Shown here: in pieces, positions 59,818 to 64,000 of the stretch | How the letters are laid out: every line of letters starts with the position of its first letter | Position numbering within the stretch: position 1 is the stretch's first letter | Origin: an uncultured Acholeplasmatales bacterium | GTDB lineage: Bacteria; Bacillota_I; Bacilli_A; Acholeplasmatales; Anaeroplasmataceae | NCBI GenBank assembly: GCA_944324705.1 | Contig: CALUXI010000006.1 | Coordinates: 1 to 64,000 of the forward strand | DNA: 64,000 bases | Direction of reading: 5' to 3' | Position numbers and translations under genes: made by a program | Notes under the pieces: generated by a model | Seen by the model: only the letters and a program-made list of their open reading frames with translations | The model's database searches: none | Told to the model about the DNA's origin: nothing

Positions 59818-61028
59818 ATTTCAGAAGGTAATAACAAGCAGGTCATTCTTTTAGTCAATAAAGGTAAAGAAGGGTGGAACTGTAGGTCATTGTTTTCTGT
59901 TGCTTTATTTAGGTCACCTAAATCGAAAGTATTTGTTCTTCAATCAACTATGAGGTGTTTGAGAAGTATTACAGAAATTCAGCAAACGGCTAGAGCTTAT
60001 TTGTCAAAAGATAATTATAATATTTTAGATGAAGAGTTGGAGAAAAACTTTAATCTTAATATCAACACTGTAACAACTGCTGGTGGTGTACCTAAAAAAG
60101 AATACCATATTAAAATTGTTGAACCAGTTATCAATATAAGTTTATCTGAGATTAAGAAAAATTATACAATCAAAAAAAGTAGTAATGATTTGGAAAAATT
60201 TAACTTAAGCTTAGATAAAATGGATATATCAAAATATAATCTACTAAAACGATTAAAGAAGGTTTAGACGAAAGAAGAATTGCTAGAGTCGAAAGATTCG
60301 TTAGCGAAGGAATATTAAGTATTCTAAATACAAAATAATTTATGAAGTCACTAGATATTTTAAACGAGTATGGTAATGTATTGGATATTGAAGAATTATT
60401 AGAAAATTCTGGTCAATTTGATGAAATAGAAGAGTTAATTTCTAACTATAATGATATATTGTACGATGTTTTGATACCTGCAATATTTAATTATTTATAT
60501 AAAATAGAAGAAAAAGTAAAAACTGTTAAAAAAGAAGTTCCTTTAATTAAATACCCTAGTGGTTATGATTACTTTGTCTCTAGAAGTGCTGATAATTTAA
60601 CTATTCAAAAGGATGAAAATATAATTAAAAAGTATTCTGCTAAGAGTTTTCACACTGATAGATATTGTTTTGATTCTAAGCCAGAAGAACAACTCTTTAT
60701 GGATTTGATAGCTGACCAGAATGTAGAAAAAATATATTTTACAGGTATGTTTACAGGTAAAGAAAATGGTTTATCTGTGCAATATATTGACCCAGAATCT
60801 AATTTTATTAGAACGTATTATCCAGACTTTTTAGTCTACTATAAAAATGTAATGATTGAAGTTATTGAAGTTAAAGGTGATAATATGATTGACGATAAAG
60901 AAGTTAAAGCTAAGGGTGTAGCAATGGCTGAAGCTACTCATTATAGTGATAAAATGGAATATAAATTAGTTAAGTCGAGTGAAATTATGCACAAAAATTA
61001 CCGTGAATGTGATAAAAAAACAAGATAA
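59818..61028 (+). pseudogene. C-terminal remnant of a type III restriction enzyme Res subunit
   Basis: From 59818 a start-less frame reads KEGWNCRSLFSVALFRSPKS then FVLQSTMRCLRSITEIQQTA, the end of a Res-type helicase. It stops at 60267. The neighbouring frame continues TIKEGLDERRIARVERFVSE and stops at 60338. From 60342 a third segment carries the nuclease domain with KPEEQLF, YYPDFLVYYKN and IEVIEVKGD, a PD-(D/E)xK site. A helicase N terminus and a methylase gene are absent. The 228-codon last part might still be made but lacks a ribosome binding site. Confidence 0.85.
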
Positions 61029-61214: not shown

Positions 61215-61463
61215 ATGTTAATAAGTGATAACAAATTAGTATCTATCACAGAAATTAATCGTAATTTTTCTAAGATTGCTAAAAGTACTAAAGAATCTAA
61301 TGAACCTATTATTATCATGAAAAATAATAAACCAGATATGGTTTTAATTGATTATGAATTATTTAAAAAGATGGTTAGCCTATATAATAAAGAAAATGCT
61401 ATTAAAACTGCTAATGATATAATGGATGAGTATGTAGATGTATTTAAGGAACTAGCTAAATGA
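61215..61463 (+). CDS. Phd/YefM-family antitoxin
   Basis: The 82-residue protein has the family N terminus (LVSITEINRNFSKIAKST, DNA-binding) and PIIIMKNNKPDMVLIDYELF, with an acidic C-terminal helix that would bind the toxin. The ATG at 61215 follows AAAGGTAG. Its TGA overlaps the ATG of the Doc-like toxin remnant, the usual antitoxin-toxin order. With its toxin deleted, it is now probably a solitary antitoxin. Confidence 0.88.
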   Translation: MLISDNKLVSITEINRNFSKIAKSTKESNEPIIIMKNNKPDMVLIDYELFKKMVSLYNKENAIKTANDIMDEYVDVFKELAK

Positions 61464-61771
61464 TATTTATTAATAAGGACTTAATATTATTAGAAGTATG
61501 AAAAGTTTTTTTGATAGAGAAGATTTATCATATAGACTTAGATAAAATAGTTAGAATGTCTTATTCGTTAGTAATGAATCATCCATTCATAGATGGCAAT
61601 AAGAGAATTGGTTTTTTTGTTTTAGTATATCTTTTAAGACAAATAAATTTAAAACTATCTTTAGATAATGATTCAATTATAAATTTATTTTTAAGTTTAG
61701 CAGCAAGCCAAATATCTTATGATGACTTTAAGAATAATATAATGAGTAATGTTGTATACACTACGTTGTAA
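61460..61771 (+). pseudogene. Internally deleted Doc/Fic-type toxin
   Basis: An ATG overlapping the antitoxin stop starts MIFINKDLILLEV, then a TGA interrupts. The same frame resumes with KIVRMSYSLVMNHPFIDGNK, which holds the Fic/Doc active motif HPFIDGNKR, and runs to a TAA at 61769. About 30 residues expected between the start and the Fic motif are missing. The remaining 86-codon piece has no ribosome binding site, so I score the toxin as inactivated. Confidence 0.8.
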
Positions 61772-61802
61772 TATTGTTATAAAGAAAAACCAGCTTTTTT
61801 AT

Positions 61803-61860
61803 AGTGAACCCCATAAGTTGGACTAGTAGAAAATACTAGAAACACAGGAGGGGAATTTTT
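61803..61860 (+). mobile_element. Possible IS3-type insertion sequence end
   Basis: TGAACCCCATAAGTTGGACT resembles the terminal inverted repeat of IS3/IS150-type elements, and a GGAGG-bearing leader follows as in such elements. No transposase frame follows; only a 24-codon frame with no start (VGFDSLNFIQNSRKADVLKK) is seen. I take it as a relic end. Confidence 0.45.
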
Positions 61861-61957
61861 AATAGTTGGATTTGATAGCTTAAATTTTATTCAAAATAGT
61901 CGAAAAGCTGATGTTTTAAAGAAACGTCTAAAATAAGAAGCTATTTAACTATAATTT

Positions 61958-61994
61958 AGTTGTAAAAGTTAATACTTTTAAATCGCAACTTTTT
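61958..61994 (+). terminator. Two-part hairpin with a T-run
   Basis: AGTTG/CAACT encloses TAAAAGT/ACTTTTA and is followed by TTTTC. It could end the transcript of the toxin-antitoxin remnant or of a small RNA. Confidence 0.6.
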
Positions 61995-62021
61995 CTATTT
62001 GTGACTTATTAATATATAACT

Positions 62022-62110
62022 TTATAGATTAAGACTTGAGATTTATTTTTGTTTTTATTTCCTTTCCTCACTTTTAATTTCTCCTTATGTGCTTAAGCCT
62101 TAATTTATAA
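62022..62110 (+). promoter_or_regulatory. Long structured leader of a small-peptide gene
   Basis: A 19-base arm at 62022-62040 pairs with 62092-62110 with one mismatch and two G-U pairs. Its loop is pyrimidine-rich and includes CTCACTTTT, which could pair with the ribosome binding region GGAAGTGAAAA (62120-62130). Such a fold could hide the ribosome binding site of the peptide gene at 62132, as in mRNAs of type I toxins. Confidence 0.5.
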
Positions 62111-62131
62111 ACATTGTATGGAAGTGAAAAC

Positions 62132-62242
62132 ATGAATCTATGGCTTTTACATATACCAGTAGCAGCTTTTTTAGGTGCATTAATGGGTAGCATTACTAAT
62201 AAAATATATAATAAAAAAGTAGAGGTTAAAAAAGTCCTCTAA
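62132..62242 (+). CDS. 36-residue membrane peptide, type I toxin-like
   Basis: The frame begins MNLWLLHIPVAAFLGALMGS and ends with a basic tail (NKIYNKKVEVKKVL). It gives one hydrophobic helix followed by positive charges, the layout of many type I toxins and small membrane peptides. GGAAGTG precedes the ATG, a long folded leader lies upstream and a terminator downstream. That argues for a real gene. No named family is recognised and no antisense RNA is proven. Confidence 0.55.
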   Translation: MNLWLLHIPVAAFLGALMGSITNKIYNKKVEVKKVL

Positions 62243-62258
62243 TAATTAATTAATTAAT

Positions 62259-62299
62259 AAGTTAAGGTTTGTTATTTCAGCATCGAATCTTAACTTTTT
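62259..62299 (+). terminator. Terminator after the small-peptide gene
   Basis: AAGTTAAGGTT pairs with AATCTTAACTT (one G-T pair) across a 16-base loop, followed by TTTTT. Confidence 0.75.
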
Positions 62300-62345
62300 G
62301 TTGAATTAATTGGTTAAAAGGAATATATTGGAAATCCAATATAGT

Positions 62346-62384: not shown

Positions 62385-62459
62385 TGGCATCCCCTGCTAG
62401 AATCGAACTAGCGACTAGACCTTAGGAGGGTCTCGTTATATCCACTTAACTAAGAGGAC
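62385..62459 (-). tRNA. tRNA-Arg (anticodon CCT)
   Basis: Acceptor arms GTCCTCT and AGGGGAT pair with G-U pairs at the ends, discriminator G and encoded CCA follow. The anticodon stem AGACC/GGTCT encloses CTCCTAA, giving CCT for AGG codons. The T-arm GCTAG/CTAGC with TTCGATT is regular. Confidence 0.92.
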
Positions 62460-63472: not shown

Positions 63473-64000
63473 TTATAAAAGAATAGTCATATAAACAGGT
63501 AAATAAATAATATTATTGCGAACATTAAGATTAGATGTATGAATGACATAAGCTTGATGTAGCTCATTGTTATATTTATTTATATATTTATTCAATGATG
63601 TTAATGTGTAATTTTTACCTGATTTAACTTCGATTATATCTATATTATGTCGGGTTGTTATTTTAGACTTAGGTATTAAAAAATCAATCTCCATTTTTTT
63701 ACTTGTATCAATATTAGAAGGATTAGAATAAAAATATAATTTATGCCCATTAGCTGTTAACATTTGTGAAACCATATTTTCTAAAAACATACCATTATTA
63801 AATTCTAATTTATCAAATAATATTTTTGTATATAGTTCCTCTTTATTAATAGTATTGATATCAAAAGTATGGCTTAAAAGAAGACCAGTATCCCCCATAT
63901 AACATTTCAAAGCAGTTCGCTTAGTGTTCATTTTAAAGCCTAAATTTGGTTCACAAGTATTATAACAAATATTAACTATCATAGCATCGTTAAGCCATAA
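63473..64000 (-). CDS. DUF4143-type ATPase, C-terminal part, 5' end outside the window
   Basis: The frame is open to the window edge and carries the C-terminal DUF4143 nuclease-like domain. WLNDAMIVNICYNTCEP is at the start, then MGDTGLLLSHTF and NNGMFLENMVSQMLTANGHK. MEIDFLIPKSK and IDIIEVKSGKNYTLTSL hold the D...ExK pattern. The tail YLPVYM is typical. The N-terminal P-loop ATPase should lie beyond 64000. The ATG at 63982 is internal, not the start. Confidence 0.87.
   Translation of the reverse strand, partial: LWLNDAMIVNICYNTCEPNLGFKMNTKRTALKCYMGDTGLLLSHTFDINTINKEELYTKILFDKLEFNNGMFLENMVSQMLTANGHKLYFYSNPSNIDTSKKMEIDFLIPKSKITTRHNIDIIEVKSGKNYTLTSLNKYINKYNNELHQAYVIHTSNLNVRNNIIYLPVYMTILL

What the first reader, a model, noticed from the sequence alone, without database searches (positions are those of the whole stretch)
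62022..62299. Candidate type I toxin-like peptide with a ribosome-site-hiding leader
A 36-residue peptide with one helix and a basic tail has a 19-bp leader stem, a loop able to pair with its ribosome binding region, and its own terminator. This is the typical build of type I toxins, yet the peptide matches none I know.
Basis: partly seen in the sequence, partly recalled or inferred. Interest (0 to 1): 0.55.

Follow-up and report, generated by a model that had tools for sequence, protein, structure and literature searches.

The report
Possible membrane-peptide toxin gene, antitoxin unfound
A tiny gene in an uncultured AT-rich bacterium codes for a one-helix membrane peptide behind a leader that can hide its ribosome-binding site; it is built like known bacterial self-poison genes and is damaged in two of its four known copies, but neither toxicity nor an antitoxin RNA has been shown.

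Summary
The observation largely holds. A 36-residue, one-helix peptide (62132-62242) has a Shine-Dalgarno (SD) site, a leader stem pairing at 18 of 19 positions, a pyrimidine-rich loop that can pair with the SD, and a terminator hairpin. The stem alone is only mildly unusual in such AT-rich DNA.

Relatives were found in 4 of 8 genomes of the genus (own genome included); wider searches gave no convincing relative. Two copies are complete in leader and ORF. One carries a multicopy repeat inserted in its leader. One is frameshifted and lacks the stem. In the second complete copy the stem improves to 19 of 19, but SD-loop pairing is no better than composition predicts and the terminator is eroded.

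It may be part of a second RNA, but minus-strand promoter matches are not above chance.

The tested sequence features of the Fst/Ldr toxins are not met, and no Pfam family matches. Best reading: a genus-restricted candidate type I toxin-like gene, likely regulated by a leader that hides the SD. The antitoxin and the toxicity remain inferred.

The parts
61913..62027 (.). Highly conserved upstream block: hairpins and the likely toxin promoter; possible 3' part of a minus-strand antisense RNA
   Evidence: 6 substitutions in 115 compared positions between window and G007, one gap column. As a + strand RNA, 61890-62003 folds at z -2.11, 5 of 200 shuffles as good; a slightly different cut is less striking in the window, -15.0 against -12.8 sd 2.7. 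Its role is inferred.
62015..62030 (+). Likely -10 region of the toxin promoter (TATAAC 62015-62020, or TAGATT 62025-62030)
   Evidence: Read from sequence; the scored match GTGACT-18-TAGATT has 5.9 in the window and 3.2 in G007, not in the list. If TAGATT is the true box, transcription would start inside the stem. Weak.
62022..62040 (+). 5' arm of leader stem
   Evidence: 18 of 19 positions pair in window, 19 of 19 in G007
62041..62091 (+). Pyrimidine-rich loop with several anti-SD tracts
   Evidence: 62050-62062 pairs with SD and start in the fold; duplex -16.7 kcal/mol, 15 of 1000 shuffled loops reach it
62092..62110 (+). 3' arm of leader stem; its reverse complement resembles the toxin's own start region
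   Evidence: 62092-62107 unchanged in G007 (0 of 16); mirrored sequence shown
62107..62130 (-). Candidate antisense promoter TTTTCA-17-TAAATT on the minus strand (-35 starts 62130, -10 starts 62107)
   Evidence: Present at the same place in window and G007, score 5.1 in both; not in the stricter list, whose total is at chance level
62120..62127 (+). Shine-Dalgarno GGAAGTGA
   Evidence: GGAGGTGA in G007, GAGGTGA in G002
62132..62242 (+). ORF, 36 residues, one membrane helix and a basic tail
62259..62299 (+). Terminator hairpin (62259-62296) with T run to 62299
   Evidence: 13 paired positions; kept in G002, eroded in G007

Best explanation
A stand-alone gene for a small single-pass membrane peptide, most likely a type I toxin. 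Its mRNA begins with a stem that protects the 5' end and presents a pyrimidine-rich loop; the loop pairs with the SD and start codon, so that the new transcript is silent or slow to be translated, and an antisense RNA deals with what escapes. I think the antisense RNA most likely starts near 62100 on the minus strand and runs through the leader into the conserved upstream block. When released, the peptide would insert its helix in the cell's own membrane, tail inside. Shown: ORF, conservation, stem, disabled copies. Inferred: transcription, pairing in the cell, antisense RNA, toxicity.
For: Peptide with SD found in G007 at 74% and G002 at 76% identity, always without an obvious partner ORF. 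Stem kept and perfected in G007 although the loop changed by 6 gap columns and 6 substitutions. SD pairing probability 1.00 in the window, 15 of 1000 shuffles as strong, second strongest of 84 SD-ATG sites of the window. G002 copy disrupted by a repeat present 11 times in that genome; G006 copy frameshifted and without the stem. One predicted helix. All four copies lie near type II toxin-antitoxin genes or their remains (Pfam-tested for window, G007 and G002). Upstream block better conserved than the ORF, as expected of an RNA gene. SD-masking leaders are a general feature of type I toxin mRNAs (PMC11295053, read nearly whole).
Against: No antisense promoter or RNA is above chance; the proposed antisense RNA does not fold better than shuffles (z -0.31). 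SD-loop pairing in G007 is at chance (411 of 1000). No double-sided compensatory change in the stem: both changes are on the 5' arm. dN/dS 0.50, 0.49 and 0.37 on very short alignments. Only four sequences, two of them damaged.
Confidence: 0.5

Rival explanations
1. A small membrane peptide gene that is not a toxin (for example a stress or membrane-regulatory peptide), with a structured leader that tunes translation or senses temperature or ions; no antitoxin exists.
For: No antisense RNA found; weak constraint on the peptide; the leader can hide the SD on its own.
Against: Patchy presence, 4 of 8 genomes in the genus, and disabled copies are less expected of a useful housekeeping peptide; no Rfam riboswitch or thermometer at gathering score, and only chance-level matches at E up to 10.
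Confidence: 0.27
2. A degenerate or selfish passenger: the remains of a small mobile element or prophage gene, drifting, in which stem and SD pairing are by-products of AT-rich sequence.
For: Stem class only mildly enriched; two of four copies damaged; terminator eroded in G007; an insertion-sequence-like remnant lies just upstream (61800-61850, judged by eye).
Against: Window and G007 keep SD, ORF, stem and a 115-bp upstream block at 95% while the ends of the shared segment diverge; no match in 50,697 phage or 72,556 plasmid records or with three patterns in viral contigs.
Confidence: 0.18
3. A divergent Fst/Ldr-family type I toxin with a convergent antisense RNA sharing the terminator and direct repeats.
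For: Similar size, proline within the helix, charged tail, 5' helix; in G007 a 12-nt direct repeat links leader and terminator (2 of 300 shuffles reach it).
Against: No PF13955 match at E up to 10; no W between helix and tail, no P/D/S/TxxxG spacing; the direct repeat is absent in the window (175 of 300 shuffles reach the best one); sequence past the terminator is not conserved.
Confidence: 0.05

Closest known systems
TimP/TimR (Salmonella)
   Same: 38-residue small membrane peptide; SD masked in a structured 5' UTR; an antitoxin sRNA encoded on the upstream side; pseudoknot in the leader (PMC11295053).
   Different: There the sRNA is divergently transcribed and the pseudoknot activates translation; here no sRNA is shown and the drawn pseudoknot would hide the SD. 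No sequence comparison with TimP was made.
AapA/IsoA (Helicobacter)
   Same: Several anti-SD tracts able to hide the SD; antisense RNA overlapping the toxin gene in that family (PMC6733600, passages).
   Different: There a 5'-3' long-distance pairing and 3' trimming control translation; here a 3' anti-SD is only hinted at by the G007 fold.
Fst/par pAD1 and the Fst/Ldr family
   Same: About 33-residue one-helix peptide with charged tail; 5' stabilising helix and SD-hiding stem-loop in the mRNA (PMC7472228, passages and its section 2).
   Different: Family motif, tryptophan and model match absent; convergent antisense RNA and, in the window, direct repeats not found.
TxpA/BsrG-type holin-like toxins (Pfam Hol_Tox PF16935; the link to TxpA/BsrG is recalled)
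   Same: Short membrane peptide in low-GC bacteria.
   Different: No match to the model; the model finds nothing in 55 genomes of this family.

Membership tests
Type I toxin-antitoxin system | Small hydrophobic membrane peptide | tested here: met
   36 residues, KD 1.84 over 19 residues, one helix
Type I toxin-antitoxin system | SD masked by mRNA structure | tested here: inconclusive
   Strong in window (15 of 1000), chance level in G007 (411 of 1000)
Type I toxin-antitoxin system | Antisense RNA antitoxin | tested here: inconclusive
   6 promoter-like sites against 6.4 expected; two minus-strand candidates at the same place in window and G007; no unusual complementarity of the upstream + strand RNA to the mRNA (84 and 144 of 300 shuffles)
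Type I toxin-antitoxin system | Overexpression is toxic and the RNA relieves it | not testable with these tools
   Needs an experiment
Fst/Ldr family | Match to Pfam Fst_toxin PF13955 | tested here: not met
   No Pfam match at E up to 10 for the 3 peptides; 0 of 55 family genomes. The model is short and rang in only 1 of 14 control genomes, below its cut-off, so the negative is weak.
Fst/Ldr family | P/D/S/TxxxG(C) in the helix and W between helix and tail | tested here: not met
   P9 and G15 are six apart in the window, G19 has G15 four before; Y26 where W is expected (criteria)
Fst/Ldr family | Direct repeats shared by toxin and antitoxin RNA (par loci) | tested here: inconclusive
   12-nt repeat in G007 (2 of 300), none in the window (175 of 300)
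Fst/Ldr family | Convergent promoters and bidirectional terminator (par loci) | tested here: inconclusive
   Sequence past the terminator not conserved; weak unconserved minus-strand matches only
Hol_Tox PF16935 | Match to the Pfam model | tested here: not met
   No match at E up to 10; 0 of 55 family genomes, control rang in 3 of 14
TimP/TimR | Sequence kinship to TimP and a divergent sRNA pairing with the mRNA | not tested
   No TimP sequence was compared; upstream + strand RNA shows no special pairing

The most novel reading that the evidence does not exclude
A new, genus-restricted type I family with mirror-image starts: the leader's inverted repeat also copies the toxin's start region (TTTATA, one base, ATTAAG) onto the minus strand, so that sense and antisense RNAs start face to face about 75 bp apart with nearly the same 5' sequence, and the antisense RNA runs into the conserved upstream block.
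Probability: 0.12. Interest if true: 0.6.

Novelty: new member of a known kind. Interest (0 to 1): 0.36.

Why it matters
If confirmed it would add a type I toxin family in a lineage where Fst_toxin and Hol_Tox models find nothing in 55 genomes, and a compact leader in which a stem and an SD-hiding loop can be tested one base at a time. The four copies, two complete and two disabled by different events, also give a small natural record of how bacteria shed such genes.

Tried and rejected
Profile matches outside the genus: order search, 160 genomes, 31 with E up to 0.1; the best outside the genus (G157, 4e-4) lies in a 111-residue open frame within what looks by eye like a longer gene on the other strand. 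The other weak rows were not looked at one by one. Class sample, 395 genomes: 3 matches at E up to 0.005, of which G495 (0.0049) was not followed; phylum sample, 392 genomes: 4 matches, three weak ones (G503, G552, G553) not followed.

DNA matches outside the four copies: in the genus search 6 of 8 genomes match at E up to 0.01, but those of G003 and G004 are short, 20-49 bases, and were dropped; in the family search 33 of 55 match, the best outside the genus 42 bases. I read the sequence around four of these hits (L018, L019, L030, L031) and saw no peptide gene of this kind; the others were dropped by length and E-value.

Upstream RNA as a trans antitoxin: complementarity to the mRNA at chance. 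Convergent antisense past the terminator: 240 of 300 (window) and 33 of 300 (G007) shuffles reach the observed pairing. A minus-strand ORF in the leader: seen by eye in the window, not kept in G007.

Paper searches were by topic; none can search a peptide, so absence from print is not claimed. Other papers in those lists were seen as listings only.

Full report
What is there. The window's ORF 62132-62242 codes for a 36-residue peptide with a good SD. AlphaFold2 predicts one helix. Hydropathy and a +4 tail fit a single-pass membrane peptide. The leader stem pairs at 18 of 19 positions, and the loop's UGUUUUUAUUUCC pairs with GGAAGUGAAAACA over the SD and the A of the start codon. A hairpin with a short T run follows.

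How far chance explains it. Comparable stems occur 16 times in the window and 2-11 times in each of 10 shuffles. The fold of 62020-62310 has z -1.38. SD-loop pairing is stronger than in all but 15 of 1000 shuffled loops, and ranks second among 84 SD-ATG sites on both strands of the window. So each part alone is modest; conservation is the stronger evidence.

Relatives. A protein search over 60 relatives matched 11 genomes at E up to 1; G007 (9e-11) and G002 (7e-8) are clear, G006 (0.008) is a fragment, and the other rows were dropped as weak. DNA and profile searches agree: 4 of 8 genomes of the genus, own genome included. The pattern search of genome contigs found only the G002 and G007 contigs (L073, L074), both titled 'uncultured bacterium'. 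Nothing was found in phages, plasmids or viral contigs.

What the copies say. G007: complete, stem 19 of 19 with one G-U, both changes on the 5' arm improving pairing; terminator eroded. G002: the first 95 bases of the contig, which replace the 5' part of the leader, occur 11 times in that genome (9 whole, 2 of 92 bases; several at contig ends) and in no other of the 8 genomes, so a mobile repeat has landed in the leader; the frame also runs on to 50 residues into the terminator. G006: frameshifted, leader stem gone. dN/dS is 0.50, 0.49 and 0.37 for the three pairs of readable copies on 84-96 nt: mild constraint at most.

The overlooked part. Between window and G007, 61913-61995 has 5 substitutions in 83 and 61996-62027 has 1 in 32, against 22 in 108 in the ORF and 11 in 54 in the 3' part. 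A promoter needs only the last ~40 bp, so the rest probably does something. Two tests failed to say what: it has no special complementarity to the mRNA as a + strand RNA, and as part of a minus-strand RNA from 62103 to 61890 it does not fold better than shuffles (z -0.31). As a + strand RNA, 61890-62003 folds somewhat better than chance (z -2.11), but less so with other ends.

Where an antitoxin could be. Two minus-strand promoter-like matches are at the same place in both complete copies: TTTTCA-17-TAAATT (62130/62107; 5.1 in both) and TAGATT-16-TACAAT or TATAAT (62140/62118; 4.2 and 5.7). Both would start an RNA near 62100-62110. The minus-strand sequence there mirrors the toxin's own start: TTTATA, one base, ATTAAG on both strands. 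This is suggestive, but overall promoter matches in the region equal the shuffled expectation (6 against 6.4), and the toxin's own promoter is not clear either: one scored box would start transcription inside the stem.

Comparison. SD masking in the primary transcript is described as a remarkable general feature of type I toxin mRNAs (PMC11295053); AapA3 uses successive anti-SD hairpins (PMC6733600, passages); the tisB leader pseudoknot is known to me here from the listing and PMC11295053. The Fst/Ldr criteria (PMC7472228, passages and one section) are not met. It works like these, if it works as I think; it is a member of none on the evidence here.

Verdict. A real, conserved small gene, most likely a type I toxin-like gene of a narrow family; interest moderate because the decisive partner, the antitoxin RNA, is not demonstrated.

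Noticed in passing
window 61215-61463 and 61511-61771: A Phd/YefM antitoxin gene (PF02604) is followed by a shortened Fic/Doc frame (profile positions 61-93 only), whereas G002 has a fuller Doc of 129 residues and G006 a 129-residue frame of like sequence: the type II module upstream looks broken.
   Followed up: partly
window 63473-64000 (-), L003 5-1228, L073 1776-3026: DUF4143 proteins lie near three of the four copies by Pfam. The family is common in this genome: 11 matches, a lower bound, since the window's own copy scores 41.6 bits but is not among them.
   Followed up: partly
L073 1-95: A repeat present 11 times in G002 and in no other of 8 genus genomes; several copies sit at contig ends, so it breaks that assembly.
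   Followed up: partly
window 61800-61850: Sequence resembling the end of an IS3/IS150-like insertion element (label recalled, not tested) just upstream of the conserved block.
   Followed up: no
window 62388-62459 (-): A tRNA gene (Rfam RF00005) follows the peptide gene on the opposite strand.
   Followed up: no
window 60342-61028: Frame with weak DUF1064 and TnsA-like endonuclease matches.
   Followed up: no
L003 (G007) leader and terminator: 12-nt direct repeat TTAAGGTTTGTT shared by leader and terminator arm in G007, diverged in the window.
   Followed up: partly
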